A model generated the notes under the pieces. That model was not told where the DNA came from and did no database searches. It saw only the letters and a program-made list of their open reading frames with translations. A program made the translations under genes and the position numbers. Of a stretch of DNA of 54,569 bases, positions 12,838-54,569 are shown in pieces. Numbering within the stretch: the stretch's first letter is position 1; the number at the start of each line of letters is the position of its first letter. Source of the stretch: Synergistaceae bacterium (GTDB lineage: Bacteria > Synergistota > Synergistia > Synergistales > Aminobacteriaceae); NCBI GenBank assembly GCA_017443985.1, contig JAFSXR010000051.1, positions 1 to 54,569 on the forward strand, written 5' to 3'.

Positions 12838-12878
12838 CAGGTAACAGGTAGGAATTAGGAGTTAGGAGGCAGGAGTTA
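12830..12878 (+). repeat. Seven-unit heptanucleotide array
   Basis: Seven 7-base units stand in perfect register: ACAGGTA three times, then GGAATTA, GGAGTTA, GGAGGCA and GGAGTTA. The array starts within the last codons of ygeX and runs toward ygeY. Confidence 0.9.
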
Positions 12879-22615: not shown

Positions 22616-22677
22616 AATTATAGGAATTAGGAATGAAAAACAAAAAAACTCCTACCTCCTACCTCCTAATTCCTACC
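22616..22677. repeat. Inverted heptad arrays forming a hairpin before yqeB
   Basis: TAGGAATTAG on the left pairs with CTAATTCCTA on the right; between them lies an A-rich loop and TACCTCC/TACTCC-type heptads. The stem would sit about ten bases before the yqeB start, which has no Shine-Dalgarno of its own, so it may lower or control translation of yqeB. Confidence 0.65.
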
Positions 22678-22684
22678 TGAAAAA

Positions 22685-23479
22685 ATGCTTGCATGTATTC
22701 GAGGGGCGGGGGATTTAGCTTCCGGGATTGCAGTGAGGCTCTTCCGCTCCAACTTCAAAATTATTATGCTTGACATCGAAAATCCGACGACCGTCCGCAG
22801 AACTGTGAGTTTCTCTGAGGCTGTCCGTTTGGGAAAAACTTTTGTCGAGGATATTGTCGCATACCGCGCTGAAAATTTTAGTGAGGCTCTGGAAATTGCA
22901 AATAAAAATTCCGTTGCCGTTCTCGTTGACCCTGACGGAAGCGTCATAAAAAATCTTGCGCCTGATGTTTTAATTGACGCGATAATCGCAAAAAAGAACT
23001 TGGGCACAAAAATTAACGATGCTCCGATAGTAATCGGCGTAGGGCCGGGTTTTACGGCCGGGCTTGACTGCCATGCTGTAATCGAAACGAGACGCGGACA
23101 CACTTTAGGCCGGGCATTTTATAAGAAAGGTGCGAAGGCTATAAAAAATACCGGCGTTCCAGGAAATATCGGAGGCTATTCAGTTGAAAGAGTTTTACGA
23201 GCTCCGTGCGACGGCGTTATAACTCCCGTTAAGGAAATCGGCGACATAGTCAAAGCCGGAGAAATTGCTGCGACTGTTGATAATACTCCGTTATACTGCA
23301 CGATTGACGGAATGCTGCGCGGAATGTTGGCACCAGGCGTAAAAGTTTTTGAGGGCATGAAAAGCGGCGACATTGACCCAAGAGGCGCGGAGGTCGATTA
23401 TCTGAAAGTATCCGATAAAGCTCTCTCAATCGCCGGCGGAGTTTTAGAAGCAATTTTACATTTTCATGAAAATAATTAA
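22685..23479 (+). CDS. yqeB: YqeB, selenium-dependent molybdenum hydroxylase maturation protein
   Basis: The 264-residue product starts MLACIRGAGDLASG, the Rossmann-like GxGDLA signature of EF2563/YqeB proteins. It continues with VLVDPDG, VIGVGPGFTAGLDCHAVIET and GNIGGYSVERVLRAP. The C-terminal half looks like a biotinyl/lipoyl-type hammerhead (DGVITPVKEIGDIVKAGE). YqeB is a marker of the labile-selenium Mo hydroxylase pathway and probably acts in maturation. The gene has no visible Shine-Dalgarno behind an inverted heptad hairpin. Its TAA stop is the first bases of a heptad array that also forms the N-terminus of the next gene, which overlaps by 14 bases. Confidence 0.9.
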   Translation: MLACIRGAGDLASGIAVRLFRSNFKIIMLDIENPTTVRRTVSFSEAVRLGKTFVEDIVAYRAENFSEALEIANKNSVAVLVDPDGSVIKNLAPDVLIDAIIAKKNLGTKINDAPIVIGVGPGFTAGLDCHAVIETRRGHTLGRAFYKKGAKAIKNTGVPGNIGGYSVERVLRAPCDGVITPVKEIGDIVKAGEIAATVDNTPLYCTIDGMLRGMLAPGVKVFEGMKSGDIDPRGAEVDYLKVSDKALSIAGGVLEAILHFHENN

Positions 23480-24662
23480 CTCCTGCCTCCTGCCTCCTAC
23501 TTCCTACTTCCTAACTCCTACCTGTATAGCGGTCGTCGGTGCAGGCGGAAAAAGTACGTTAATCGAAAACTTAGCTGAAAAATTTGCCGCTGAAAATAAA
23601 AAGGTCTGTATCACAACAACGACACATATTTATAAAAATCATGACCGTGAAAATATTTTTTATGCCGGAACGGACGAGGGTGAAAAACTTTCTTATCCGG
23701 GCGACGAAGATTTTTCACGGCTTTGTGCTTCTTATGACGTTGTTTTAGTTGAGGCTGACGGCTCAAAACATTTCCCGATAAAAATTCCTAATGAAAACGA
23801 GCCTGTTATCCCTTCTAACGTCAATGAAATTTTTGTAGTCATGGGATTAAACGCTCTTGGCCGTCCTGTCGGCGAAGTCTGCCAGCGTTTCGATAAAGAA
23901 AAATTAATTGCAAAATTTCCCGGCATTGACGAAAAATTTTTAGTGAATGACGAGTTAATTAATTTCATTGCAGAAAAATTTTATATAAGGCCGCTGAAAA
24001 AAAATTTTCCTGACGCAAAAATTAATTTCATAAAAAATGATTTTTTATCACTTCCTACCTCCTGCCTCCTAACTCCTAGCTCAAAAGTTGCTTTGATTTT
24101 ATTAGCTTCGGGAATGTCAAAACGCTTTGAGACTGATAAAAATAAACTTTTCTATAAAATTCACGGCAAAGAAATTTTCAGATACGGCCTTGAGGCTTTA
24201 ATAAACGCTAAAAAAATTTTGAGCAAAAATAAAATTAATTCCCAAGTTTTTATGACGGGCGGAAATATTCCAGAATATGACGACGTAAAAATTATTGACA
24301 ACCCCGACAGGCTCGAAGGCATCGCAGGATCGATAAGGCACGGAACAGAAGCCGCAATAAAAAATAATTGTAATGCTGTTTTATTTTTTGCTGCCGACAT
24401 GCCGAACTTTCCTGCCGAAGACATAGCAGGACTAGTCCGCGAATTTTTATGCTCTAAAAAATTATGCGGCTGTGCTTTTTCAAATTATCCGGCTAATCCG
24501 GGAATTTTTGACGCTTCAATGTATAAAGATTTATTAAAACTTTCGGGCGACACGGGCGCGCTGAAAATTATCAAGCAATGTCCGCGAGACGTTCATTATT
24601 ACGTCGTGAGCCCCGAAAAACTTTTTGACATCGATACACTAAACGACACCGCCGATTTTTAA
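23466..24662 (+). CDS. YqeC-MocA fusion: Se-dependent Mo hydroxylase maturation and molybdenum-cofactor nucleotidyltransferase
   Basis: Residues about 20-190 are YqeC: IAVVGAGGKSTLIENLA (P-loop-like), CITTTTHIYK, VLVEADGSKHFPIK and VVMGLNALGRPVG. Residues about 206-398 are a MobA/MocA-like nucleotidyltransferase: ALILLASGMSKRFETDKNK, then FFAADMPNFPAEDIAGL. In E. coli these are separate (yqeC and ygfJ/mocA). MocA makes molybdopterin cytosine dinucleotide, the cofactor form used by XdhD-type enzymes. Two heptad arrays lie inside the gene: one encodes residues 5-19, the other the linker at about 195-206. The start at 23466 is uncertain; the conserved YqeC region begins only after the first array. 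Confidence 0.85.
   Translation: MKIINSCLLPPTSYFLTPTCIAVVGAGGKSTLIENLAEKFAAENKKVCITTTTHIYKNHDRENIFYAGTDEGEKLSYPGDEDFSRLCASYDVVLVEADGSKHFPIKIPNENEPVIPSNVNEIFVVMGLNALGRPVGEVCQRFDKEKLIAKFPGIDEKFLVNDELINFIAEKFYIRPLKKNFPDAKINFIKNDFLSLPTSCLLTPSSKVALILLASGMSKRFETDKNKLFYKIHGKEIFRYGLEALINAKKILSKNKINSQVFMTGGNIPEYDDVKIIDNPDRLEGIAGSIRHGTEAAIKNNCNAVLFFAADMPNFPAEDIAGLVREFLCSKKLCGCAFSNYPANPGIFDASMYKDLLKLSGDTGALKIIKQCPRDVHYYVVSPEKLFDIDTLNDTADF
23477..23524 (+). repeat. Heptad array across the yqeB stop and the yqeC-mocA N-terminus
   Basis: Units TAACTCC, TGCCTCC twice, TACTTCC twice, TAACTCC and TACCTGT stand in register (complement orientation of the TAGGAGK unit). The array is translated as Ser/Cys/Leu/Pro/Tyr/Thr-rich sequence before the YqeC domain. 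Confidence 0.9.
24049..24083 (+). repeat. Heptad array forming the inter-domain linker of yqeC-mocA
   Basis: Five 7-base units (CACTTCC, TACCTCC, TGCCTCC, TAACTCC, TAGCTCA) are translated as SLPTSCLLTPSS between the YqeC and MocA domains. The peptide closely resembles the one encoded at the N-terminus of the same gene. Confidence 0.85.
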
Positions 24663-36225: not shown

Positions 36226-36229
36226 AATT

Positions 36230-36724: not shown

Positions 36725-37622
36725 AGGCTTCAAAGGCGAGCGGAAAGATACAAGCGGCCCGGCTCTCAAAGAAATGTTAGAGGCAGACGGCTGGAAAGTT
36801 GTTTACACAAATATTATTCCTGATGAGCGCGAAAAAATTAAAAGCGAGTTGGTAAAATGTGCAGATGAATTGAAAATTAATTTAGTTCTTACAACAGGCG
36901 GCACAGGATTTTCTCCGCGTGATGTAACTCCCGAAGCAACTTTGGATATTATCGAACGCCGAACGCCCGGTATCCCGGAAGCAATGCGAGCTGAAAGCAT
37001 GAAAATCACGCCACGCGCTTGTCTCTCACGCGAAGAGGCTGGAATTAGAAAGCAGACTTTAATAATTAATTTACCGGGAAGCAAAAAAGCCGCGTCTGAA
37101 AATTTTTCTGCTGTCATAAATGCAGTGAGGCACGGCGTTGAAATGATTAACTCTTCCGGCTCGGCGGACTGCGCTGAACAAATAGGAAAAATTTTATCCG
37201 TCAACATCAGCGAAAAAAAAGGTACACCAAAGCACCCTGTCGATAAAATCATAATGAAGCCTGATCACGGGATTGTCGGCGATGCTCACGCAGGAAACTG
37301 GCACAGGCAAATTAGTTTGTTAGGCGATGAAAGCGTCAAGAAAGCTCAAAAAAATTTGTCGTTCAATTTGGCTCCTGGCGACTTCGCTGAAAATATTTTA
37401 ATCGAGGGAATTTGCTTGTATAAGCTGCCAGTAGGTACACGCTTGAAAATTGGTACAGCCTTGTGCGAAATAACTCAGATCGGCAAAGAATGCCACTCTG
37501 ATTGCGCAATTCGCAAATTAACGGGCGATTGCGTTATGCCGCGTGAGGGCGTTTTTGCAAAAGTTCTCGAGGAGGGCGAAGCTAAAGCAGGAGACCTTGT
37601 TCAGGTAGGAGTTAGGAGGTAG
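36684..37622 (+). CDS. MogA-MOSC fusion protein
   Basis: Residues 1-165 are a MogA/MoaB molybdopterin adenylyltransferase: AAVITVSDKGFKGERKDTSG, then LTTGGTGFSPRDVTPEATL and INLPGSKKAASENF. Residues about 168-312 are a MOSC domain (KILSVNISEKKGTPKHPVDK, HAGNWHRQISLL, GDFAENI and the Cys-containing GKECHSDCAIR). MOSC domains carry molybdenum-cofactor sulfuration or transfer activities, so the fusion joins activation with a sulfur step needed for xanthine dehydrogenase. AGGAGG stands before the ATG. The last five codons (VGVRR) and stop are encoded by a heptad array. Confidence 0.9.
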   Translation: MEIITAAVITVSDKGFKGERKDTSGPALKEMLEADGWKVVYTNIIPDEREKIKSELVKCADELKINLVLTTGGTGFSPRDVTPEATLDIIERRTPGIPEAMRAESMKITPRACLSREEAGIRKQTLIINLPGSKKAASENFSAVINAVRHGVEMINSSGSADCAEQIGKILSVNISEKKGTPKHPVDKIIMKPDHGIVGDAHAGNWHRQISLLGDESVKKAQKNLSFNLAPGDFAENILIEGICLYKLPVGTRLKIGTALCEITQIGKECHSDCAIRKLTGDCVMPREGVFAKVLEEGEAKAGDLVQVGVRR

Positions 37623-37630
37623 GAGTTAGG
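37603..37630 (+). repeat. Four-unit heptad array at the mogA-MOSC/modA junction
   Basis: AGGTAGG, AGTTAGG, AGGTAGG and AGTTAGG run from the last codons of mogA-MOSC to one base before the modA ATG. They supply both the stop of the first gene and several overlapping Shine-Dalgarno-like sites (AGGAG) for the second. Confidence 0.9.
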
Positions 37631-37631
37631 A

Positions 37632-38408
37632 ATGAAAAAATTTTTTTTAGTGTTATTTTTAGTGTTGTGCGTTTTAGTAAATACAGCAGGAGCGGAGAAA
37701 AAAGATTTAATAGTCTTCGCTGCGGCCTCAATGACCGAGACAATGAACGAGATCAAAAATTTGTATGAAAATGAAAATCCTGACGTTAATGTAATTTTTA
37801 ATTTCGACTCGTCAGGAACGCTCAAAACTCAAATTCAAGAGGGCGCAGCGTGTGATTTATTCATCTCGGCAGGACAGAAGCAAATGAACCAGCTTGAAGA
37901 ATTAAAATTAATTCTTAATGGTACGCGAATTAATTTGCTTGAAAATAAAATTGCCCTTGTAGTTCCTGACGGCTACGCAGGAAACATCAAGAGCTTCGAT
38001 GATTTAGCAAAGGCACTCAAGAACGAAAAAATTTTATTTGCAATGGGCAACAGCGATGTCCCCGTTGGTCAATATACGCAAAAAATTTTTGCATATTACG
38101 GCCTCGATGAAAAAGAATTGGCGCAGGCCGGGAAAATCACATACGGATCAAACGTAAAAGAAGTTACGACGCAGGTTAAAGAATCGAGCGTTGATTGCGG
38201 CGTTGTATATTGCACGGACGCTTACAGCGCAGGCTTAAAAATTATTGATACAGCTACGCCGGAAATGTGCGGTCAGGTCATTTATCCGGCAGCAGTTATA
38301 AAAGAAAGCGCAAATATAAATTCTGCTGAAAAATTTTTGGATTATCTGACAAAATCAGAGGCCATGAAAATTTTTGCGTCAGTAGGATTTTCTCCGGCAA
38401 AAAATTAA
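37632..38408 (+). CDS. modA: Molybdate ABC transporter, substrate-binding protein
   Basis: The 258-residue product starts with a signal peptide (KKFFLVLFLVLCVLVNTAGA, then EKK) without a lipobox. The mature part has the ModA pattern: LIVFAAASMTETMNEIKNLY, FNFDSSGTLKTQI, CDLFISAGQKQMNQLEE and GNSDVPVGQYTQK, with CGVVYCTDAYSAG near the hinge. It binds molybdate or tungstate outside the membrane. Its ribosome site is a tandem heptad array, so copy-number changes there could tune its expression. It is followed by modB and modC. Confidence 0.93.
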   Translation: MKKFFLVLFLVLCVLVNTAGAEKKDLIVFAAASMTETMNEIKNLYENENPDVNVIFNFDSSGTLKTQIQEGAACDLFISAGQKQMNQLEELKLILNGTRINLLENKIALVVPDGYAGNIKSFDDLAKALKNEKILFAMGNSDVPVGQYTQKIFAYYGLDEKELAQAGKITYGSNVKEVTTQVKESSVDCGVVYCTDAYSAGLKIIDTATPEMCGQVIYPAAVIKESANINSAEKFLDYLTKSEAMKIFASVGFSPAKN

Positions 38409-38417
38409 AAATAAAAA

Positions 38418-42801: not shown

Positions 42802-42810
42802 GATGAAATA

Positions 42811-42847
42811 TAAAAAAAGAGGCCCTATGCTGCTCACATAAAGCCTC
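42811..42847 (-). terminator. Rho-independent terminator of glgB
   Basis: On the minus strand GAGGC and GCCTC enclose a 19-base loop with extra pairing (ATG/CAT), followed by seven T. It lies 13 bases after the glgB stop. Confidence 0.65.
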
Positions 42848-42859
42848 GTCAATAAAAAA

Positions 42860-44791
42860 TTAAATTTCGTTTTTCGTGTTGAAGTGGAACATGACAATTC
42901 CGAGCGGCGGCAGACTAAGCACAAGCGAGTAAGGAAGATTATGGCACTCGACCATCTCTGTTTCCATTCCTCCGCAGTTACCGATACCGCTTCCGCCATA
43001 CTGTGTCGAGTCGCTGTTGAGAATTTCTTTCCAGAAGCCCATGCGCGGCACGCCGACACGATAGCCGAATCTCGGAACGGGGGTAAAATTCGCGGCGCAT
43101 AAAACATATTCTTCGTCGCTCTTGCCCTTGCGCCACCACACTATTACGCTGTCGTGCCAGTCGGAACAGTCAACCCACCTGAAGCCTTCGTTAGAAAAAT
43201 CAAGTTCGTGAAGCGGCTTATATTCTTTCAGGGCCTTATTCAAATCTCTGACCCAGTTTTGAATACCCCTGAAGTCTTCTTTCTGGAGCAAATGCCACTC
43301 GCACGCGCTGTCGTGATTCCATTCGAGACCCTGAGCAAATTCACCGCCCATGAACAATAATTTTTTGCCCGGATGCGCCCACATATAACCGTAAAGCAGT
43401 CTCAAATTTGCGCGTTTCTGCCACCAGTCGCCCGACATTTTATTAATTAATGACCCTTTGCCGTGAACGACCTCATCATGTGAAAGAGGCAGCATGAAAT
43501 TTTCGCTGAAGGCGTACCAGATACTGAAGGTTAATTGATTTTGATGCCAGCTCCTGTAAATCGGCTCAAGGCTCATATACTCAAGAGTATCGTGCATCCA
43601 GCCCATGTTCCATTTCATGCCGAAGCCTAAGCCGCCTAAAAATACGGGCCGCGTTACCATCGGCCAGTCGGTACTCTCTTCCGCGATAGTCTGAATAGTT
43701 CCGAAGCGTCCGTATAATTCGCTGTTCATGTCGCGGAGCAGCGATATAGCCTCAAGATTTTCACGGCCTCCGTAAATGTTCGGCACCCATTCGCCGTTCT
43801 TGCGCGAGTAGTCGAGGTAGAGCATTGAAGCTACAGCGTCAATCCTTAAGCCGTCCGCGTGATACTGGTCGATCCAGAATGCCGCCGAAGAAATTAAATA
43901 GCTCCTGACTTCGTTGCGCCCGTAATTGAAAATATAGCTGCCCCAGTCCGGGTGATAGCCCTTGCGCGGATCTTCGTGTTCATATAGTGCCGTTCCGTCA
44001 TAGCGTGCAAGGCCGAAATCGTCCGTCGGGAAATGGCTTGGGACAAAATCAAGAATGACAGCAATATTTTTCTTGTGTAATTCGTCGATTAAGTACATTA
44101 AATCTTCGGGCGTTCCGTAGCGTGCTGTCGGGGCAAAATATCCTAAAGTCTGATAACCCCACGAGCCGTAAAACGGGTGTTCCATGACGGGCAGAAATTC
44201 AACGGCATTGAAGCCCATGTCCTCGCAGTAGCCCGGAAGCTCTTCGGCCATTTCGCGATATGAGAGCGACAACCCGTCGTCCCAGTGCCTTCTCCATGAC
44301 CCTAAATGAACTTCGTAAACGCTCAAAGGCGCGGACATGCTCATAGCTTCACCGCGATGTGCAAGCCATTCGCCGTCATGCCATTCATATTCGGGCCAAT
44401 GGGTTATTGATGAAGTACGGGGCGGAAGTTCAAAGACTCGTGAGAACGGATCCATTTTGTCTTTATATTCGCCGTGAGAATTTTTAATATGGAATTTATA
44501 TAACTCCCACTTCTTGAGGTCAGGCACAAAACCTTCCCAAATTCCTGAGCCGTCCCAGCGTGCTGCAAGCGGGTGCGCGCCCGGATCCCAGCCGTTGAAG
44601 TTTCCAACTACGCTGACTTCCTGTGCGTTCGGTGCCCACACTGAAAACGCTACGCCTTCAACATTGTCCGCAGGGTCTGTAAATTTTTGTGCTCCCATTT
44701 TTTCATAGAGATGATAGTGAGTGCCCTGCTTGAACAGGAATATATCATAGTCAGTTATCGGTGATACGCCGTGTCTGATGTTACCGGCCAT
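42860..44791 (-). CDS. glgB: 1,4-alpha-glucan branching enzyme
   Basis: The 643-residue product has an N-terminal CBM48 domain (about 40-130: VEGVAFSVWAPNAQEVSVVG, then NGWDPGAHPL). The GH13 barrel follows with VEFLPVMEHPFYGSWGYQ, the nucleophile Asp near 315 in GLRIDAVAS, the acid Glu near 369 in TIAEES and LPLSHDEVVHGKGS. It forms alpha-1,6 branches in glycogen. The length is normal for the family. AAGGAGG precedes the ATG. No other glycogen genes are in the window, so it stands apart from a glg operon. Confidence 0.95.
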   Translation of the reverse strand: MAGNIRHGVSPITDYDIFLFKQGTHYHLYEKMGAQKFTDPADNVEGVAFSVWAPNAQEVSVVGNFNGWDPGAHPLAARWDGSGIWEGFVPDLKKWELYKFHIKNSHGEYKDKMDPFSRVFELPPRTSSITHWPEYEWHDGEWLAHRGEAMSMSAPLSVYEVHLGSWRRHWDDGLSLSYREMAEELPGYCEDMGFNAVEFLPVMEHPFYGSWGYQTLGYFAPTARYGTPEDLMYLIDELHKKNIAVILDFVPSHFPTDDFGLARYDGTALYEHEDPRKGYHPDWGSYIFNYGRNEVRSYLISSAAFWIDQYHADGLRIDAVASMLYLDYSRKNGEWVPNIYGGRENLEAISLLRDMNSELYGRFGTIQTIAEESTDWPMVTRPVFLGGLGFGMKWNMGWMHDTLEYMSLEPIYRSWHQNQLTFSIWYAFSENFMLPLSHDEVVHGKGSLINKMSGDWWQKRANLRLLYGYMWAHPGKKLLFMGGEFAQGLEWNHDSACEWHLLQKEDFRGIQNWVRDLNKALKEYKPLHELDFSNEGFRWVDCSDWHDSVIVWWRKGKSDEEYVLCAANFTPVPRFGYRVGVPRMGFWKEILNSDSTQYGGSGIGNCGGMETEMVECHNLPYSLVLSLPPLGIVMFHFNTKNEI

Positions 44792-44871
44792 TAAAATGCC
44801 TCCTTCGTGAAATAAAATTAAAATTAAAAGAACGTGAGAAAATTTTACGGGAAAATCGCGTTTTATTCAAT

Positions 44872-44904
44872 AAAAAATCCCCGCAGCATTAAAGCCACAG
44901 GGAT
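44872..44904 (-). terminator. Rho-independent terminator of the SYNERG-CTERM repeat protein
   Basis: On the minus strand ATCCCTGTGGC pairs with GCTGCGGGGAT (three wobble pairs) across TTTAAT and is followed by a T-run. It starts about 20 bases after the gene's stop. Confidence 0.8.
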
Positions 44905-44925
44905 ATTCTGTAAAGTGGTTTAATG

Positions 44926-47900
44926 TTAGTTTGAATACTTCTTCATGAGCGTCAGAGCAAGAGCCAAAACCCCAAGCCCCGCAAAGCCCATATCACAACC
45001 GCCGCCGCTGCTGCTGCCTATGCTGCCCGTGCCAGAATTTGAGCCTGAGCTTGAAACAGTAACTTTCAAGTCCGCGCTGTCCTCCAGTCCGTTCTCGTTA
45101 TAAGCGTAAACGGTAACGTGATAATCTCCTTCCTTCGCAGTAGAAGCCGCTACGACCGTTACTGTGTTGGTGCTGGGGTCGTTGTCTCTGTCATAATTCT
45201 GGTTGACTGAAGACAGCTCCGTTGTCGTAAGCTCTGAATAATTCCAGTCGTAAACGTTCGCCGCCTTAAACGTTGCGGAGACGCTTCCGCCGGGGGCAAC
45301 GCTGACGGACTGATCGCCCGTGCTTATTTCAGGCTTCGCTGACGTTATTGACGACGGATCCACGACATCAATAAAGAGAGGCATAGGTGTCTCGTTGCCG
45401 GTGCTGTCATGTCCGTAAACGGTGAAATAACCGCTGTCGGCCTCTGCAGTGATTACATCGGAAGTCTTTGCAGTGGAAGCAGCCGTCATAAAAATTTCGC
45501 AGATATTCGAATCATCGGGTTTAGGACGCGCAACAACGGTTAAGAAGCTCGGCGTGTCATTTCCGATTGTCCATGTAACAATGTTCGTGCCGCGTAAAAC
45601 TGTCTTTACTGTTCCTCCGGGTACAACAGACTTAAACTGGTCTTTCATTGGAGGAACATCGATTTTCGGAGCGTTCGTGTCCTCCACGATGTTGACGGTC
45701 AACGTCTTTGAAACGCTGTCGCCCTGATTGTTATAAGCAGTAACCGTTATGTCATCAGAGAGACCTTCTATTAAGTAAGAAGCAGTCGTTATAAAGACCG
45801 TACAAGTGTTTGTGTCATCTTGATATGACAACTCAACGCCGTCAAGTAAGAACGACGCATTGTCGCACGTCCAGAAGCTGATTCCTTCGCCCTTGAATAC
45901 TGCCGATACAGTACCGCCGGGCACAACGTTCACGCTTGAAGGCGCGGTCGTGATTGTAGGTTGCTCACTTGTTCCCTCCGTGATGATACTGACAGTGAGT
46001 TTCGCTGGAGAAGCTACAACTTCGCCGACTTCATTATAAGCATAGATGTCTATTGTTGCTGTAGTATCTTGTGATACTGCTTCGCTTGTCGTAACAAGAA
46101 CTTCACAGCGGTTTGTGTTGGTCGAATAATTAAGCTCAACCGCCGTTACTCCGTCAGGAAGATTTCCGTATCTCCAAGTCTTGACATTCTTTCCTGTGAA
46201 GATAGCCCTTGCAGTTCCTCCGGCTATGACTTCTACTTCTCCGTTTCCGTCAATCGTTGCGGAAGCATATGTCGTAGAAGAACTTTCTTCCGTTACCGTA
46301 ACTGTTAAAGTTGCGCTTACCTCTTCGCCGACTGCGTTATAAGCGTAAATATCTGTAGAATATGTGCCTGCTTCAGCCGTAGAACTCGCGGTAACGAGAA
46401 CTTCACAGCGGTTTGTGTTGGTCGAATAATTAAGCTCAACGGCCTTCAACGCCGCTGGAAGATTTCCGTACTTCCAAGCATTTACATTCTTTCCCGTAAA
46501 TACAGTCCTTACAGTTCCGCCGGCCTTGACTGTTACTTCCTCATTTTTGTCAATCGTCGCAGCGGCGTATGTATCTGTCGTTACTGTAATTTTTAATGTT
46601 GAGCTTACCTCTTGTCCGACCTCGTTATAAGCATACATAGGTACGGAGTAAGTCCCGGCCGTTGCCGTCGAGCTTGCAGTAACAAGAACTTCACAGCGGT
46701 TCGGGTTGCTTGAATAATCCAGCTCAACGGCTTTCACAGCGGCAGGAAGTTTTCCGTATTTCCAAGCGCGGACATTCGTTCCCGTGAAAACGGCCTTTAC
46801 AGTTCCGCCGGCCTTGACTGATACTTCCGCGCTCTTGTCAATCGTTGCGGGGGCGTATGTCTGTGTCGTTACCGTAACTTTTAATGTTGAGCTTGTCGCC
46901 TCGCCGGCCGCATTAGCCGCATAAATAGGCAGAGTGTAAGTGCCGGCCTTCGCATTTGAGCTTGCAGTAACGAGAACTTCACAGCGGTTCGGATTGCTTG
47001 AATAGTTCAGCTCAATATCATGTATATCATCAGAAAAATTCCTGTCATAGTCCCAAGCGCGGATATTCTGTCCCGTGAATACAGCCTTTGCAGTTCCGCC
47101 GGCTATAACGGTTACAGACTCGGCCTCATCGATAACAGGGTTTTTGAAGTCATCAGGGTTGGCCGCGACAATATGCAGATAAGCAGGAGTTGTTACAACC
47201 TGTCCTACTGCGTTATAAGCGTAAACTTTAATGTCCGCAGTAGTAATCACAGCATCAACGCTTGTATTTGTCATGACATACATTTCACAGCGGTCAGGGT
47301 TATCAGCATACGAACATTCAATTTCACTTATCCAAGCATATTTGGCCATGTCAGAACGGTCAACCGCCCAAGACCTTACGTGCTTGCCCGTGAATACCGC
47401 CGTTGCTGTTTTGCCCGGCACAACGCTGATTATCTCGTCTGCATCGATTGTTGCTGCTGTGTGCGCTTCGTTCTGGACAACCTTTATGGTCAATGTTGCA
47501 GGGTCTGACTTCTGGCCGATCGCGTTAAGCGCGTAAATTTTTTTCGTGTAGGTTCCGACTGCTGCATTTTCAGCGGCCGTTACCTTAACGTTGCAGCGGT
47601 TGGTACTCTTTGAATAATCAAAAGTAATGTCGCTGATTATGTCGCTTGAAAGTTCGCCGTCATAAATCCAACCCTTTGCGTACTTACCCGTGAAGGTTGC
47701 CGTTGCAACTCCGCCCTGCACGACAGTTACTTCTTCGTCGCTGTCAATCGTGGGTTTCATATGGTCTTCGTTGAGCGTAACATTAACCACTATGTATCTA
47801 CTCATTATATCTGTTCCGGGTTTACCGGCTCCGTTGAGGCCATAAATGAGAATTTTATGTACTCCGGCTTTCGCGTCAGGGTTGACATTCACATAAGCAT

Positions 47901-48987
47901 AACAGATCTTAGGACTGTTCTTATCGAAACTCAGCCTCACGCTGTCAATGTTACCCTGCAAATTATCCTCATCGTCCCCGCAAACCCAATCTCTAAGATA
48001 GTCGGAACCTGTTAATGTTACCCAGCCTGTTTCGCCCTGCTTAATTGTAATCGTTTTAGGGACGATTGAATCGACTGTAGCGTCTGAGTGATCCGCGTCA
48101 GGCGAGAAATTTATTCTCAATGTTTTTTCAGCTCTTGTACCATATGGGTTATAAGCGTATATAGGCAGATCCTCATACTCACCTTTCGGATATATGGCCT
48201 CATTGGGTGTTGCCGTTATGGTAATTGTGCATTTTGTCGGGTCATCTGCATAATCAAACTCAATCCCTTTTATGTAGGGATCCGCATTTCTCTTGAGCCT
48301 ACTATTACCGTGATCCCACCTTACGGTGTTCGTGCCAGTGAAGTCTACCGAGACCTTAGCACCCTGCATAATTGTAATCTCGTCAGGGCCGCTGATTGTC
48401 GGTGCTTCTTTACTTGCCACAACCTCAATGGTAAAATTCTGCGTCATCATTTCCGGCGTTACTCCTGCCTGCTGATAACCGCACGAAGGATAGCCATTAA
48501 CCGCAAATTGGTATTTGCCAGCCGGTATGCTGTTATTTACGTTGATATAAAGTTCAACATAGTTATTGTTTACGTCTTTATGCAATTCTGCATTCGGACG
48601 AGCTAGACGCAAATTATCCTTTATCATCGTCTGTACTCCGGGCGTAACACTTTTAGTCTCACCCCGAAATGTATATGTAAATCCGGCCGTTGAGTTCAGA
48701 GATTGAAGATAGGCAGTGTAATGGAAAGGGTCGGCATAAATATTACTACTATCCCTGTCTATTGCAAAGCCAATGTGAAGACTGCCGCCATGAGCAACCT
48801 CTATTGTGGGGTTATTAATTCGCACTGTACCGTTGTAGAATCTTCCGTCGCTCCAAGTTGTAGTCTCGGTAGGATCCTGCATCCATATTCCATATACTTT
48901 GGCAGCCGCAAACGACGGAGTGTCGAGCGAGGTCAGCAACGCCGCAAGGAGAAAAACTCCCAACAAGAAAAACTTTTTACTTCTCAT
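44926..48987 (-). CDS. Large exported repeat protein with SYNERG-CTERM sorting signal
   Basis: I start at the ATG at 48987 behind AGAGGTGG; a GTG 12 bases earlier lies in that site. The 1353-residue product has a signal peptide (KKFFLLGVFLLAALLTS), an N-terminal domain to about 190, and eleven tandem units of about 80-110 residues. Each unit runs from a hydrophobic-Ile-Asp start through a Gly-rich turn (KAGGTVKAVFTG), a conserved Trp (AWKYGN), and a conserved Cys (NPNRCEVLVTAS) to a YAYN strand, which suggests a beta-sandwich. Units 5-8 are nearly identical even as DNA. The C-terminus is a Gly/Ser linker, GGGCDMGFAGLGVLALALT and a basic tail, matching the SYNERG-CTERM signal. It is probably surface-anchored; adhesion is possible but unproven. 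Confidence 0.88.
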   Translation of the reverse strand: MRSKKFFLLGVFLLAALLTSLDTPSFAAAKVYGIWMQDPTETTTWSDGRFYNGTVRINNPTIEVAHGGSLHIGFAIDRDSSNIYADPFHYTAYLQSLNSTAGFTYTFRGETKSVTPGVQTMIKDNLRLARPNAELHKDVNNNYVELYINVNNSIPAGKYQFAVNGYPSCGYQQAGVTPEMMTQNFTIEVVASKEAPTISGPDEITIMQGAKVSVDFTGTNTVRWDHGNSRLKRNADPYIKGIEFDYADDPTKCTITITATPNEAIYPKGEYEDLPIYAYNPYGTRAEKTLRINFSPDADHSDATVDSIVPKTITIKQGETGWVTLTGSDYLRDWVCGDDEDNLQGNIDSVRLSFDKNSPKICYAYVNVNPDAKAGVHKILIYGLNGAGKPGTDIMSRYIVVNVTLNEDHMKPTIDSDEEVTVVQGGVATATFTGKYAKGWIYDGELSSDIISDITFDYSKSTNRCNVKVTAAENAAVGTYTKKIYALNAIGQKSDPATLTIKVVQNEAHTAATIDADEIISVVPGKTATAVFTGKHVRSWAVDRSDMAKYAWISEIECSYADNPDRCEMYVMTNTSVDAVITTADIKVYAYNAVGQVVTTPAYLHIVAANPDDFKNPVIDEAESVTVIAGGTAKAVFTGQNIRAWDYDRNFSDDIHDIELNYSSNPNRCEVLVTASSNAKAGTYTLPIYAANAAGEATSSTLKVTVTTQTYAPATIDKSAEVSVKAGGTVKAVFTGTNVRAWKYGKLPAAVKAVELDYSSNPNRCEVLVTASSTATAGTYSVPMYAYNEVGQEVSSTLKITVTTDTYAAATIDKNEEVTVKAGGTVRTVFTGKNVNAWKYGNLPAALKAVELNYSTNTNRCEVLVTASSTAEAGTYSTDIYAYNAVGEEVSATLTVTVTEESSSTTYASATIDGNGEVEVIAGGTARAIFTGKNVKTWRYGNLPDGVTAVELNYSTNTNRCEVLVTTSEAVSQDTTATIDIYAYNEVGEVVASPAKLTVSIITEGTSEQPTITTAPSSVNVVPGGTVSAVFKGEGISFWTCDNASFLLDGVELSYQDDTNTCTVFITTASYLIEGLSDDITVTAYNNQGDSVSKTLTVNIVEDTNAPKIDVPPMKDQFKSVVPGGTVKTVLRGTNIVTWTIGNDTPSFLTVVARPKPDDSNICEIFMTAASTAKTSDVITAEADSGYFTVYGHDSTGNETPMPLFIDVVDPSSITSAKPEISTGDQSVSVAPGGSVSATFKAANVYDWNYSELTTTELSSVNQNYDRDNDPSTNTVTVVAASTAKEGDYHVTVYAYNENGLEDSADLKVTVSSSGSNSGTGSIGSSSGGGCDMGFAGLGVLALALTLMKKYSN

Positions 48988-49108
48988 ATAATAAACCACC
49001 TCTTATGAACTCTTATGAAAAATTAAAAATAATTTTCAAAAAATTTAATTTATAGAGTTAATTAAAACTCGGAAGTGCATTTTACATTACCCTCCCCCTT
49101 TAATCAAG

Positions 49109-49657
49109 TTAAGGGTGAGAAAAAAATTCATAGTTCTCAAAAACAAAAAACTCTGGTGCAACTAAGCCGTTACCTTCTGAAAATTCGTTGACTTTATCTT
49201 TATAATCACCGCTTGAAATTAAAGCCGCGTTCGGAAAAGCTAAGACCCATTTCGACAGAGCGAGCCCCACTGCGTAAGGAGAGCAGGCCAAGTCCGACAG
49301 CCCGGACTCAAGCCGCGCAAGGTCAACGCTCACGACGGGGACATACTCATCAAAAAGTGCCTGCCAGTTGATATTATTTTTTAATAAATAATCCGACGGA
49401 GCTATCAAAATATTTTCATCGCTGCTGAGCGATGACGAAGTTAATTTTATGCACCCGAACGGCATTAACTCGCTCGTGCAGAGCCATTCAAAAGAACTCG
49501 CAGAGCCTTCGGGCAAAGTTTCGAGCCTTAAATTATGAGAGAGACGCGAAAATAATTTCATGCTCATGTTTCTGTCGGCACTAAGGAGCAGAGCTTTCGT
49601 CCTGCCCTCAAAAATTTTCATAGAAAAAAACCGCGACTTGAAAGAATGTTCGCGCAT
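49109..49657 (-). CDS. Hypothetical protein, probable C-terminal part of the upstream GTPase gene
   Basis: The 182-residue frame has no Shine-Dalgarno at its ATG (49657), and the same frame stays open upstream through the heptad array 49687-49742. The sequence (KIFEGRTKALLLSADRNMSM, then FEWLCTSELMPFGCIKLTSS) shows no domain I know. The frame relation is such that gain of one heptad, or loss of two, in the array would join it to the GTPase frame ending at 49666. I therefore treat it as the detached 3' part of that gene, though a separate gene eight bases downstream is also possible. Confidence 0.55.
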   Translation of the reverse strand: MREHSFKSRFFSMKIFEGRTKALLLSADRNMSMKLFSRLSHNLRLETLPEGSASSFEWLCTSELMPFGCIKLTSSSLSSDENILIAPSDYLLKNNINWQALFDEYVPVVSVDLARLESGLSDLACSPYAVGLALSKWVLAFPNAALISSGDYKDKVNEFSEGNGLVAPEFFVFENYEFFSHP

Positions 49658-49665
49658 TGAAGTTA

Positions 49666-51264
49666 TTAACGAAGAGAAGAGCGAAGAGGAAGTAGGAGGT
49701 AGGAGTGAGGAGTTAGGAGGTAGGAAGTAGGAAGTAGGAGTGATGAGGTAATGACTTCATTGCCAGCCGCTAATTGTTTTAATTTTTCGATGATCGCGTC
49801 TAATTTCCATTTTAATAAATCAGTTCTTGAGCGTTCTATAATTTTTAGGGCGCGTTTGGCACGTAAAAATAAAGCCCGTTCGAGCGAGTTACGGCCAAGT
49901 TCTTTCAAAAAATTAATTATGCCGTCAATATTTGAATTTTTCCATGCGCTTGAATTTCTGTTGAAAAAATTTTCTACGGCAATCTTCGAGGATAACGCGA
50001 TAACTTCAACTTCAGAGCCGTTAAAATTTTTAATACCATTTTTAATTGCGGCGATGTCGCTTGAAATTTTTTCGTCCGCCGTCCTGATAACTTTTCCGGC
50101 CTCCGTGTCATCGCTCTCTAAATCTACTTGAGTGAGAGCGAAAATTATTTCTTCATTCTTAGCTCCAAGCTCATCAAAAAATTTATAGTCAGAGCCTTTT
50201 AATCTTGAGCGTATCGGAATGACATAAATAATAAAATCAAGTTCCGGCAAAATATTTTTCAAAGCCCCTGCACCCGTGAAAGCGTCCCAGCCCGGAGTGT
50301 CAACGAGGCAGATATTTTCGGGGATTAACGCGCCCGGTATTGTAACCTCGACTCTTGCGGCCTCGTTAATACCTCCTAACTCCTCCCTCCTACCTCCTAC
50401 CTCTTCAATGCGTCCGTCCTGATAAAAAATTTTCGCGGATTTTTTTTCGCCTTCTCTGAAAAAAACAGGGACGTTTTTAATATTTATTTTTTCTCCCGTG
50501 ATTGCGTTAATAAGCGCGGATTTTCCGCTTCCTGACAAACCTGCAACGCCGACGTTCAAATATGGAGAGCCCAGCGAACGTTTTAAGGCCCTTAATTGCG
50601 CATCGCCGGTGAGAATATTTAATGCAGCGTCAAGATTTTCATTTAACGAATTAAAAATAAAATCGTTTTGAAGAGAATTTTTTTCTGAAATTTTTAACGG
50701 TGCCGGGAACGGCGAGAAAATTCTCCGGGAAATTTCGTGCCTCAAAATTAAATTTTCCTGCTCTAAATCTTTTTTCAGCGTGATGTCGCTCAGGGTCATA
50801 ACACCGGCAACCCGGACGGCCTCAAGAATTTTTACACGCCCGTAATCGTCAGTGATTTCTATAGTGTCGCCATCGTCAGCATCGGAGAGCCACGCGCTTA
50901 ACCCTAAAATTTCACTGCCAAATAATTTCAGCGGCCTGCCATCGGAATTTCTTTGAATGAAAGCGTCAAGCCTGAAGTTTCTATAAATTCCGTCTCCGCA
51001 ATATAATTTCCGGTTAAGCGAGAAAAAATTTTCATGACTGCTGTAAATAATATTTTCAAGTTTAGAAATTTTTGAGTGGTCGGACGGGTGGCAAAGTTCG
51101 TACCATTGGTCTAGAGTTTTCGGACAAGTTGAAATTTCGAGCCTCATAAGGCGTAAAAGTTCAGACGAGAAATAAATATCTCTCGACGGAAAAATTACGG
51201 TCAGTCCCGGCTCGCTCGATGAGTTTATAAAATATTTGCGTTTCCATTCAGAAAATTTAATCAT
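49666..51264 (-). CDS. PAS-domain dynamin-like GTPase
   Basis: The 532-residue product has a PAS_3-like N-terminus (LDQWYELCHPSDHSKISKLE, GIYRNFRLDAFIQRNSDG). A dynamin/YfjP-type GTPase begins near 235: G1 GLSGSGKSALINAITG, G3 CLVDTPGWDAF and G4 ALTQVDLE. A helical tail follows. PAS-coupled large GTPases are unusual; a signal-responsive membrane or stress role is conceivable, but no partner is seen. Two heptad arrays are translated: one inserts EEVGGRREELGG between G1 and G3, the other forms the Leu/Pro/Ser/Tyr-rich C-terminus just before the stop. The second array probably shifts the frame from the following 182-codon frame. No clear Shine-Dalgarno precedes the ATG. Confidence 0.75.
   Translation of the reverse strand: MIKFSEWKRKYFINSSSEPGLTVIFPSRDIYFSSELLRLMRLEISTCPKTLDQWYELCHPSDHSKISKLENIIYSSHENFFSLNRKLYCGDGIYRNFRLDAFIQRNSDGRPLKLFGSEILGLSAWLSDADDGDTIEITDDYGRVKILEAVRVAGVMTLSDITLKKDLEQENLILRHEISRRIFSPFPAPLKISEKNSLQNDFIFNSLNENLDAALNILTGDAQLRALKRSLGSPYLNVGVAGLSGSGKSALINAITGEKINIKNVPVFFREGEKKSAKIFYQDGRIEEVGGRREELGGINEAARVEVTIPGALIPENICLVDTPGWDAFTGAGALKNILPELDFIIYVIPIRSRLKGSDYKFFDELGAKNEEIIFALTQVDLESDDTEAGKVIRTADEKISSDIAAIKNGIKNFNGSEVEVIALSSKIAVENFFNRNSSAWKNSNIDGIINFLKELGRNSLERALFLRAKRALKIIERSRTDLLKWKLDAIIEKLKQLAAGNEVITSSLLLPTSYLLTPHSYLLLPLRSSLR
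49687..49742 (-). repeat. Eight-unit heptad array near the 3' end of the GTPase gene
   Basis: On the plus strand the units read AGGAAGT, AGGAGGT, AGGAGTG, AGGAGTT, AGGAGGT, AGGAAGT twice and AGGAGTG; a ninth degenerate unit follows. The array is translated as a low-complexity tail, and its unit length is not a multiple of three. Confidence 0.92.
50370..50404 (-). repeat. Heptad array inside the GTPase domain
   Basis: Plus-strand units TACCTCC, TAACTCC, TCCCTCC, TACCTCC and TACCTCT are translated on the minus strand as a charged Glu/Gly/Arg loop between the G1 and G3 motifs, a place where dynamin-like proteins tolerate insertions. Confidence 0.85.
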
Positions 51265-51283
51265 TTTTTTTTGTCCTTAATTG

Positions 51284-51289
51284 TATAAT
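51284..51289 (+). promoter_or_regulatory. Candidate -10 element of lysA
   Basis: A perfect TATAAT lies 40 bases before the lysA start in the short gap after the divergent GTPase gene. No convincing -35 element is present at normal spacing. Confidence 0.35.
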
Positions 51290-51329
51290 TCTGCAAATAA
51301 TAACATGAGAAAGGATTTAGTTTTCAATA

Positions 51330-52613
51330 ATGAAAAAACTTACTTGGGGCGGAGTTGACTGTCAGAAATTAGCCGAAGAATACGGAACGCCTTTATACGT
51401 TTTCGACACGGGAATAATAAAATCGCGCTGCCGTGAACTCCGCGAAACTTTCATGGAACGCTGGGAAAATACGACCGTGCGTTACGCAAGCAAAGCATTT
51501 TTAATAAAGGAAATGGCACGCATAATAAAAAGCGAGGGGCTTGGGCTTGATGTCGTGTCGCTCGGAGAACTTTACACGGCATTGAAAGCCGGCTTTCCTC
51601 CTGAAAAAATCGAGATGAACGGAAATGCCAAGAGCAGCGAAGAAATTTCTTTTGCGATTAATTCCGGCGTAGGAAGAATTATTGTAGACCACCCTGACGA
51701 ATTAAAAACCATCGAACATTTTGCAAGCCTGAAAGGAATTAAGCAGAAAATTTTAATCCGTGTTGCTCCCGGCGTTGACGCTCACACGCACGCTTATATA
51801 GCGACGGGACAGACTGACAGCAAATTCGGACTTCCTGTTGATATTTCTGAAGGCTCAATGTTAGCGCACTCGATTCAATATGCAATGAAGAGCGAATATC
51901 TTGACTTGAGGGGCTTGCATTTCCACGTAGGTTCGCAGCTTTTTGACCCTGACGACAACGTAAAGGGCCTCGAGAAAACTATCGAGTTAATGAAAAAATT
52001 AAAGGACGCTTTCAATTTTACGACGAAGGAATTAAATTGCGGAGGCGGCTTCGGAGCTGTGATAAATCCTTCAGTTTCTCCCGTGAAGTGCGCGGATTTC
52101 ACCGACCCTATGATGAAATTGCTGTATGAGGACTGCAAAAAATATAATCTTGAAATTCCGCAGATAATCATCGAGCCGGGCCGCTGGGTAATTTCAGAAG
52201 CCGGAATAACTCTATACAAAGTCGAGAACATCAAAGAACTTCCGAAGCTGACATACATAGCCGTTGACGGAGGAATGGCCGACAATCCGCGCTACGCTCT
52301 CTATCAGGCTGAATATGAAGCCGTTAATGTCAACGATATTGAAGCTCCGGTTTACGATCCCGGCGACGGTACAAAATTTTCAGTCGTTGGAAAATGCTGT
52401 GAGAGCGGAGATATTTTGATTGACGACGCAAAACTCCCGAAGCTCAAAGCCGGCGACATAATCGCGCTGTACAATTCCGGCGCATATACTTTCAGTATGT
52501 CGAGCAGGTATAACAGACTTCAAAGACCGGCTGTAATATTCGCTGAGGACGGCCAAGCACGTTTAGTATCAAAGCGTCAGACGCTTGACGACATGATCAA
52601 AGACGAAATATAA
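51330..52613 (+). CDS. lysA: Diaminopimelate decarboxylase
   Basis: The 427-residue product is a fold-type III PLP decarboxylase. Lys55 in RYASKAF binds PLP; HVGSQLFDPD, CGGGFGA and EPGRWVISEAG line the cofactor site; GKCCESGDIL supplies the active-site Cys and substrate contact near the C-terminus. It makes lysine from meso-diaminopimelate. AAAGGA stands about 15 bases before the ATG. It is a single gene, followed by a heptad array and copy 3 of the operon-end repeat. Confidence 0.93.
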   Translation: MKKLTWGGVDCQKLAEEYGTPLYVFDTGIIKSRCRELRETFMERWENTTVRYASKAFLIKEMARIIKSEGLGLDVVSLGELYTALKAGFPPEKIEMNGNAKSSEEISFAINSGVGRIIVDHPDELKTIEHFASLKGIKQKILIRVAPGVDAHTHAYIATGQTDSKFGLPVDISEGSMLAHSIQYAMKSEYLDLRGLHFHVGSQLFDPDDNVKGLEKTIELMKKLKDAFNFTTKELNCGGGFGAVINPSVSPVKCADFTDPMMKLLYEDCKKYNLEIPQIIIEPGRWVISEAGITLYKVENIKELPKLTYIAVDGGMADNPRYALYQAEYEAVNVNDIEAPVYDPGDGTKFSVVGKCCESGDILIDDAKLPKLKAGDIIALYNSGAYTFSMSSRYNRLQRPAVIFAEDGQARLVSKRQTLDDMIKDEI

Positions 52614-52616
52614 AAC

Positions 52617-52651
52617 AGGTAGGAGTTAGGAGGTATGAGGTAGGAGGTAAA
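52617..52651 (+). repeat. Heptad array after lysA
   Basis: Units AGGTAGG, AGTTAGG, AGGTATG, AGGTAGG and AGGTAAA start four bases after the lysA stop. The 337-bp gap 52614-52950 otherwise holds the operon-end repeat copy 3, its hairpin and the thrS promoter, and no gene. Confidence 0.85.
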
Positions 52652-52690
52652 AAATAAAAAGCACTTAAAAAAATCTTTCGCAAAAAATTT

Positions 52691-52800
52691 GAGTGTCTGA
52701 AAAAAAATTTTGAATCCTAATTTTTTAATTTGCTTCGTGAATTTTTATAAAGCTTGAAAATTTTTGAAATTTTTGTAGGTGTAAAAGTAGTTGCAAAAAA
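52691..52800 (+). repeat. Operon-end repeat, copy 3
   Basis: It aligns with 33013-33122 over the whole length and with the complement of 5589-5698, best at GAAATTTTTGTAGGTG and AAAAGTAGTTGC with an A-run. A hairpin ACAGCTCT-N10-AGAGCTGT (52801-52826) follows. On the minus strand a TATAAT at 52836-52841 with TTGAAA 18 bases upstream precedes this hairpin, which then ends in a T-run. AAAAGCAC (52657) and GTGCTTTT (52848) bracket this copy as short inverted repeats. Confidence 0.75.
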
Positions 52801-52895
52801 ACAGCTCTCGATATTTTAAGAGCTGTTTCGCGTTTATTATATCATAGGTGCTTTTAATTTTCAAAAAAATTTCTTAACGCTTGATTTATCAAAAG

Positions 52896-52904
52896 TGTTA
52901 TACT
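52896..52904 (+). promoter_or_regulatory. Candidate thrS promoter (extended -10)
   Basis: TGTTATACT fits an extended -10 element about 47 bases before the thrS ATG. The leader is too short for a T-box, and none of the T-box sequence landmarks are seen. Confidence 0.45.
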
Positions 52905-52950
52905 TTCTAGAAAAAATTTTATTTCATAAATAAGGCAGGTATTTATTTTT

Positions 52951-54569
52951 ATGTTGCAGTTTAAGAATGGCGATAAGTCTTGCGAATTTGATAAGAATGA
53001 AATAATTTTGCATGACGTTATAAAATCGCTTGGCCTTGATAATAAAAAAATCATAGCGGCAAAATTTAACGGAGAATTAATGGACTTGTCGCGCTGTGTA
53101 AATTCCGGCGGCGAGGTCGAAGCAGTTTCAGCCGACAGCCCTGAAGGTTTGGAAATTTTACGCCACAGCACGGCGCACTTAATGGCTCAAGCAATTTTGC
53201 GCTTATATCCCGGTTCTCATTTCGGAGTAGGTCCTGCGATTAAGGACGGATTTTATTATGATGTTGACGCAGCCGGAACAATAACGGAAAACGATTTGCC
53301 GAAAATTGAAGCGGAGATGAGAAAAATTGCAGGCGCGGGCGAAAAAGTTTCAAGAGAAGACATGCCAAAAGACGAGGCATTAAAATTTTTCGCCGAAGAT
53401 CCTTACAAGACCGAATTAATTTCAGAGATTGACGCTCCTACAGTTTCTGTTTACAAGCAGGGCGAATACGCGGACCTTTGCAGAGGCCCTCACGTTCCCG
53501 ACGCTTCAAAAATTCATAACTTCAAACTGCTTTCAATCGCCGGAGCTTATTGGCGCGGAAGCGAAAAAAATAAAATGCTTACGAGAATTTACGGCACGGC
53601 CTTCGCAAACCCTGACGAATTAAAAGCATATATAAAGATGCTTGAGGAAGCCAAGCTGAGAGATCACAGAAAACTTGGAAAAGATTTAGACCTCTTCAGC
53701 TTACACGAAGAAGGTCCGGGCTTCCCGTTCTTCCACCCAAAGGGAATGGCAATAATGAACACGCTGATCGATTTCTGGAGGCGCGAACACAATAAACGCG
53801 GCTACACTGAAATTAAAACTCCGCAGATTTTAGACCGCGAATTATGGATACGTTCGGGGCACTGGGATCACTACCGTGAAAACATGTACTTCACTGAAAT
53901 TGACGAGAAGCCTTACGCCATTAAGCCAATGAACTGTCCGGGAAGCATTTTAGTTTACAAGACGCAGTTGAGAAGTTACAGAGACTTGCCGATGAGGCTG
54001 ACCGAGCTTGGCTGTGTTCACAGGCACGAACGCAGCGGAGTCCTTCACGGATTGATGCGCGTGCGCTGCTTCACTCAGGACGATGCCCACACATACATTG
54101 AGCCGACAAAAATTAAAGAAGAAGTTACGGCGATTATGGAGCTTGATAAATATTTTTACACTAATGTTTTCGGCTTCAAGTATTCAGTCGAACTTTCAAC
54201 GCGCCCGGAGGATTCAATGGGAACTGACGAACAGTGGGAGGCCGCAGAGAACGCATTGAAAGACGCTCTTGAAAGCACCAACACCCCATATACGATTAAT
54301 CCCGGCGACGGAGCTTTTTACGGGCCTAAAATTGATTTTCACCTTGAGGACTGTATCGGCAGAACGTGGCAATGCGGAACTATTCAGCTTGATTTCCAAA
54401 TGCCCGGACGCTTCGGAGTTACGTACATCGGCGAAGACGGCGCAGAACACACGCCCGTTATGATTCACAGGGTCGTGTTTGGGAGCGGTGTGCGTTTCAT
54501 GGGAATTTTGTTTGGGCCTTACGCCGGAGCGGTTGCGTTTTTGCTCGCGCCGGGGCAGGGCAAAATTAT
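52951..54569 (+). CDS. thrS: Threonyl-tRNA synthetase, 3' part beyond the window
   Basis: The frame is open from the ATG at 52951 to the window end (539 codons plus two bases). It has an N-terminal TGS domain (residues 1-62), the editing domain with HSTAHLMAQA near 73, GKDLDLFSLHEEGPGFPFFH, the catalytic core MNCPGS, motif 2 (ELGCVHRHERSG) and GDGAFYGPKIDFH. It charges tRNA-Thr and removes Ser. The Shine-Dalgarno is weak (AAGG, distant). After MIHRVV the sequence departs from the usually invariant motif 3 region (FGSGVRFMGILFGPYAGAVA instead of the expected IERFIGILIEHYAG-like run), which looks like error at a contig end. The anticodon-binding domain is outside the window. Confidence 0.92.
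   Translation, partial: MLQFKNGDKSCEFDKNEIILHDVIKSLGLDNKKIIAAKFNGELMDLSRCVNSGGEVEAVSADSPEGLEILRHSTAHLMAQAILRLYPGSHFGVGPAIKDGFYYDVDAAGTITENDLPKIEAEMRKIAGAGEKVSREDMPKDEALKFFAEDPYKTELISEIDAPTVSVYKQGEYADLCRGPHVPDASKIHNFKLLSIAGAYWRGSEKNKMLTRIYGTAFANPDELKAYIKMLEEAKLRDHRKLGKDLDLFSLHEEGPGFPFFHPKGMAIMNTLIDFWRREHNKRGYTEIKTPQILDRELWIRSGHWDHYRENMYFTEIDEKPYAIKPMNCPGSILVYKTQLRSYRDLPMRLTELGCVHRHERSGVLHGLMRVRCFTQDDAHTYIEPTKIKEEVTAIMELDKYFYTNVFGFKYSVELSTRPEDSMGTDEQWEAAENALKDALESTNTPYTINPGDGAFYGPKIDFHLEDCIGRTWQCGTIQLDFQMPGRFGVTYIGEDGAEHTPVMIHRVVFGSGVRFMGILFGPYAGAVAFLLAPGQGKI

What the first reader, a model, noticed from the sequence alone, without database searches (positions are those of the whole stretch)
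49109..51264. Likely phase-variable or split PAS-dynamin-like GTPase at a heptad array
The GTPase frame ends at 49666 just after an eight-unit heptad array. The downstream 182-codon frame has no ribosome site and is open upstream through the array in another frame. Computing the frames by hand, one extra heptad (or two fewer) would fuse both into one protein of about 720 residues. Slipped-strand mispairing would therefore switch the C-terminal domain on and off.
Basis: partly seen in the sequence, partly recalled or inferred. Interest (0 to 1): 0.75.

Follow-up and report, generated by a model that had tools for sequence, protein, structure and literature searches.

The report
GTPase gene split by slipped heptad array
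In an uncultured gut bacterium (Synergistota), a gene for a sensor-coupled GTPase is cut into two reading frames because it is exactly one 7-base repeat shorter than its sister species' intact copy; the repeat is one of hundreds scattered through this lineage's genome, so a chance slip fits better than a purpose-built on/off switch.

Summary
The 532-codon and 182-codon frames are two halves of one gene, out of frame by one heptad. The closest relative (G019, 94.5% DNA identity) has an array exactly 7 bp longer at the same place and one uninterrupted ORF. All 32 same-genus relatives with the C-terminal domain carry both parts in one frame. The Met that opens the 182-codon ORF is an internal conserved residue, so this is a split gene.

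The switch reading is only partly supported. The array belongs to a dispersed family, CAGK-(TAGGAGK)4-TAAAA, abundant in three of 43 genus genomes. About 60% of arrays begin at a same-strand stop codon, against 2% expected, and four units is the usual number. This matches the G-rich heptamers described in Xanthomonas and Nostoc, whose authors thought phase variation unlikely. Most orthologous arrays keep length and unit order between the sister species, but the one in this gene is longer and more changed than most. Reads showing a mixed population could not be examined.

Best explanation: a recent loss of one heptad, by slippage or unequal recombination, in an array that had colonised an inter-domain linker. 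The split is potentially reversible; nothing shows that it is a regulated switch.

The parts
49666..51264 (-). N-terminal part of a PAS-GTPase gene (532 aa): weak PAS_3, dynamin-type GTPase domain, helical segment, then an out-of-frame tail encoded by the array
49109..49657 (-). C-terminal part of the same gene (182 aa); its ATG is the internal conserved Met of 'SSLITSMREREF'; not a separate gene in relatives
49686..49750 (+). TAGGAGK heptad array (about 8 imperfect units, antisense to the gene) in the inter-domain linker; one unit shorter than in sister species G019
49669..49756 (-). stretch in which both frames are open; a +1 (mod 3) length change here would fuse them
49658..49665 (-). 8-nt gap between stop of part 1 and ATG of part 2, without ribosome-binding site; only termination-reinitiation could express part 2
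50372..50399 (-). second heptad array, sense and in frame inside the GTPase domain (EEVGGRREELGG), replacing a longer loop of relatives; its third unit is GAGGAGT, which avoids an in-frame TAG
12849..12876 (+). dispersed heptad array of the same family
22648..22675 (-). dispersed heptad array
23479..23520 (-). dispersed heptad array, antisense inside a 398-aa ORF that is intact in G019 as well
24051..24078 (-). dispersed heptad array, antisense inside the same 398-aa ORF
37606..37633 (+). dispersed heptad array, differs by 7 bp from G019
52620..52647 (+). dispersed heptad array directly after the stop of the 427-aa ORF

Best explanation
One PAS-dynamin-like GTPase gene was recently frameshifted in this genome by the net loss of one heptad within a dispersed TAGGAGK array that had colonised the linker between the GTPase/helical part and a conserved C-terminal domain. 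Shown: the gene is single in relatives; the sister array is exactly one unit longer; the array family is dispersed. Inferred: the loss came from slippage or from unequal recombination within the array, and it is accidental though potentially reversible. The expected product is a 532-aa protein lacking its C-terminal domain, with the domain made separately at best by weak reinitiation.
For: Sister G019 has +7 bp at the array and one ORF. All 32 same-genus relatives with the C-domain have both parts in one frame, and the domain is fused across 12 genera. The C part still looks constrained: no stop in 182 codons, dN/dS 0.16, 9 against 6 lineage-specific residues, so the break is young. The array family is genome-wide, usually four units, at gene ends. 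Most orthologous arrays keep length and unit order. Divergence to G019 changes sharply around the array (dS 0.0125 before, 0.41 after), so a recombination junction near it is possible.
Against: This array is more diverged than its flanks and longer than any other in the own sample, which would also fit a more active, switch-like locus. The single assembly cannot show whether a fused allele coexists.
Confidence: 0.6

Rival explanations
1. A true phase-variable (contingency) locus: slipped-strand mispairing adds or removes heptads at high rate, so that the C-terminal domain is switched on and off within a population.
For: Unit length is not a multiple of 3; both frames are open through the array; the sister differs by exactly one unit; the array is the longest in the own sample and diverged 20% against 4.4% in its flanks; the C part is still constrained.
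Against: Units are imperfect, with at most two identical neighbours; arrays of the family generally change slowly; no relative other than this genome shows a clean OFF state; the gene is not a surface or modification gene; the array belongs to a dispersed family that is not specific to this gene.
Confidence: 0.22
2. Assembly or sequencing artefact: the metagenome assembly dropped one heptad and the real gene is fused.
For: The genome is a fragmented, 75% complete assembly; tandem repeats are where short-read assemblies can lose units.
Against: The array is only about 55-65 bp and its units differ, so ordinary reads would span it; several other arrays also differ by about one unit between the two species.
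Confidence: 0.1
3. A functional split: the two parts work as separate polypeptides, the second made by termination-reinitiation at the ATG 8 nt after the stop.
For: Stop and start lie 8 nt apart; dN/dS of the C part is 0.16.
Against: No ribosome-binding site; no other genome shows the split; the first part ends in an array-encoded tail; the constraint mostly reflects time before the break.
Confidence: 0.08

Closest known systems
G-rich heptameric repeats GGGNATC / GGGGA(C/T)T of Xanthomonas and Nostoc (Rehm et al. 2015, PMC4692102)
   Different: Unit here is TAGGAGK with GG rather than GGG tracts, so G-quadruplex formation is untested; fixed edges (CAGK ... TAAAA); Synergistota; some clean empty sites in a sister species
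TAACTGA heptamer repeats of Beggiatoaceae (MacGregor 2015, PMC4679880)
   Same: Dispersed short heptamer arrays with patchy distribution; sense-oriented arrays give stops in all three frames, so inside ORFs they are open in the reverse orientation or mutated
   Different: TAACTGA arrays lie just upstream of start codons; these lie just downstream of stop codons
SSR-mediated phase-variable genes, including heptanucleotide tracts (e.g. neuO of E. coli K1, listed as PMC13001214)
   Same: Repeat unit not divisible by 3 inside an ORF; loss or gain of one unit breaks or restores the frame
   Different: Imperfect array of a dispersed family; no demonstrated switching; PAS-GTPase rather than a surface or modification enzyme
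Bacterial dynamin-like proteins (BDLP 2j68, 5owv, IniA 6j72)
   Same: GTPase and following helical region match by profile (5e-12 to 9e-10)
   Different: N-terminal PAS-like domain and a C-terminal domain with no PDB or Pfam relative

Membership tests
SSR-mediated phase-variable (contingency) locus | tandem array in a coding region with unit length not divisible by 3, both frames open through it | tested here: met
SSR-mediated phase-variable (contingency) locus | array length differs between close relatives so as to switch the frame | tested here: met
   +7 bp in G019, fused ORF there
SSR-mediated phase-variable (contingency) locus | near-perfect, homogeneous units | tested here: not met
   units TAGGAGG/TAGGAGT/GAGGAGT/TAGGAAG/GATGAGG
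SSR-mediated phase-variable (contingency) locus | mixed ON/OFF alleles within a population | not testable with these tools
   no reads; one genome per species
Dispersed G-rich four-unit heptamer repeats (Rehm et al. class) | hundreds of dispersed arrays of a 7-bp G-rich unit | tested here: met
Dispersed G-rich four-unit heptamer repeats (Rehm et al. class) | preference for four units | tested here: met
   53/99, 78/99 and 27/39 arrays in three species
Dispersed G-rich four-unit heptamer repeats (Rehm et al. class) | enrichment next to stop codons on the sense strand | tested here: met
   59-62% of arrays against 2% of random positions
Dispersed G-rich four-unit heptamer repeats (Rehm et al. 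class) | G-quadruplex formation; GGG tracts in the described members | not testable with these tools
   only GG tracts here; four near-invariant GG tracts per four-unit array
Bacterial dynamin-like protein | dynamin-type GTPase domain | tested here: met
   Dynamin_N 34.2 bits over cut-off 27; in 21 of 22 family members
Bacterial dynamin-like protein | membrane-binding paddle or transmembrane region | tested here: inconclusive
   C-domain has no structural relative; the predicted model was unusable, pLDDT 34
REP element with RAYT transposase | Y1_Tnp transposase in the host genome | tested here: not met
   PF01797 absent from G000, G013 and the complete G019

The most novel reading that the evidence does not exclude
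The heptad array is a short inserting element (about 38 bp, CAGK-(TAGGAGK)4-TAAAA) that spread in one Synergistota clade, targets sites just behind stop codons, sometimes leaves duplicated target sequence, and seeds in-gene arrays whose length changes can turn protein domains on or off.
Probability: 0.12. Interest if true: 0.65.

Novelty: new member of a known kind. Interest (0 to 1): 0.38.

Why it matters
It gives a clean natural case of how dispersed heptamer arrays, normally parked behind stop codons, can end up inside a gene and break it by one repeat unit. It also adds another bacterial phylum and a new unit to a little-studied repeat class that shows the same odd rules (four units, sense strand, at stop codons), which makes their origin and spread testable by comparing sister species with filled and empty sites.

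Tried and rejected
Two separate genes: rejected, since all relatives are fused. REP/RAYT mobilisation: Y1_Tnp absent from the three array-rich genomes. Reverse-transcriptase mobilisation (group II intron, retron, DGR): RVT_1 absent from the same three. CsrA as the specific array-binding protein: CsrA is in nearly all genus genomes, with or without arrays, so not informative. RNA structure at the junction: z = 0.40, nothing. Rfam: no match in the window. Structure of the C-domain: model with pLDDT 34, discarded. Literature on this unit in Synergistota: none found.

Full report
Observation. The window carries a 532-codon ORF (51264-49666, minus strand) and, 8 nt after its stop, a 182-codon ORF (49657-49109). 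A heptad array lies at 49686-49750; seven strict units at 49693-49741 are followed by a degenerate eighth. The second frame is offset by two bases and is open upstream to 49757, the first to 49668, so both are open across the array. The upstream sequence of the second ATG (TCTTCTCTTCGTTAATAACTTCA) has no ribosome-binding site.

Homologues. The closest genome, G019 (an uncultured Synergistales metagenome assembly from sheep), matches 35299-54569 at 94.5% DNA identity. At the array it has exactly 7 bp more and a single ORF of 718 aa from the same ATG. In all 32 same-genus relatives with the C-domain, both parts lie in one open frame. A profile of the C-domain finds it in 58 of 188 genomes of the phylum, in 12 genera; apart from this genome only G066 (three internal TAG codons) looks broken, and hits at contig ends are partial. 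The Met that begins the 182-codon ORF is the conserved internal Met of 'LLSSLITSMREREF'. So the two ORFs are one gene, and the split is specific to this genome.

The protein. Relatives have a PAS_3-like N-terminus, a dynamin-type GTPase domain and a helical region, closest among solved structures to BDLP, 5owv and IniA. The C-terminal domain has no Pfam or PDB relative; its two-sequence structure model was unusable.

What the array is. TAGGAG-type two-unit matches number 613 in this genome, against 4 for the reversed pattern. Three-unit exact matches: 73 here, 118 in G019, 47 in G013, two each in G007, G025 and G063, none in the other 37 genus genomes, and none in the genomes of other genera among 151 sampled in the order. 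Sampled arrays have a common form, CAGK-(TAGGAGK)n-TAAAA, with near-invariant AGGA and four units as the mode (53/99, 78/99, 27/39). 59-62% begin within -22 to +20 bp of a same-strand stop codon, against about 2% of random positions, in all three species. About 10-12% have at least two inverted heptad units within 90 bp downstream, against 1% background. This is the pattern reported for GGGNATC heptamers of Xanthomonas and Nostoc (PMC4692102), whose authors considered phase variation unlikely. Because TAG occurs once per unit and seven is not divisible by three, a sense array closes all three frames within three units; MacGregor notes the same for TAACTGA (PMC4679880). In-gene arrays are accordingly antisense or mutated. 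The second array in this gene (50372-50399, sense, in frame) has GAGGAGT where a TAG would be in frame.

How stable arrays are. Of 40 orthologous own/G019 arrays, 27 keep unit count and most others differ by one; some of those differences are a mutated rather than a lost unit. Same-length arrays differ at 3.9% of bases, and over 48 loci the median array divergence (4.8%) is no higher than in flanks (5.6%). High-rate slippage should have scrambled unit order. Other ORFs with arrays keep their frame between the two species, including in-frame length changes. This array is an exception: 20% diverged against 4.4% in its flanks, plus the 7-bp gap, and the longest in the own sample. G013 has a degenerate antisense array in the same linker, in frame, so the linker array probably predates the sister split.

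Age and cause of the break. The C part shows dN/dS 0.16 and no clear excess of lineage-specific changes (9 against 6), with no stop in 182 codons; the break is recent. Synonymous divergence is 0.0125 before the array and 0.41 in the C part, most of it towards the 3' end. So recombination has homogenised the first part, and a junction near the array is possible. Slippage and unequal recombination cannot be separated here.

Insertion. Some loci are filled in one sister and clean in the other. One filled site in G019 (C2:203348) is flanked by a repeated TGCGCGGAAT that is single in the empty site; others show weaker or no duplication. That hints at insertion, but no candidate transposase or reverse transcriptase was found, and deletion of old copies may explain part of it. 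I rate this a lead.

Verdict. Adaptive phase variation is possible (0.22) but lacks the evidence that would define it.

Noticed in passing
L100 (G019:C2:200001-220000), about 3320-3420; also G019 C1:34702 and C1:155115: Heptad element flanked by a 10-bp direct repeat (TGCGCGGAAT) that is single in the empty G000 site; weaker duplications at two other filled/empty pairs.
   Followed up: partly
L189 (G000:C28) near 3263 against G019; G000 counterparts of G019 C1:31681, C2:240490, C3:29071: GC-rich palindromes (e.g. GCCTGTCTGCCGGACAGGCAG) sit inside or replace heptad arrays in one of the two sister species: apparently a second dispersed repeat family associated with the arrays.
   Followed up: no
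window 35299-54569: Identity to G019 alternates between about 87% and 100% in 250-bp bins (74% at 49049-49298), suggesting recombination mosaics between the two species.
   Followed up: partly
window 44926-48999 (-): 1357-aa ORF next to the GTPase with tandem repeats of about 288 bp (46084-47015) and a hydrophobic C-terminal tail; looks like a surface protein.
   Followed up: no
G066:C198:3088-3656: A second genus member whose C-domain match contains three TAG codons and breaks into two frames: possibly another independently broken copy.
   Followed up: no
window 23466-24662 (+): 398-aa ORF with two antisense heptad arrays, intact and of equal length in G019: in-gene arrays can be stably kept in frame.
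   Followed up: partly
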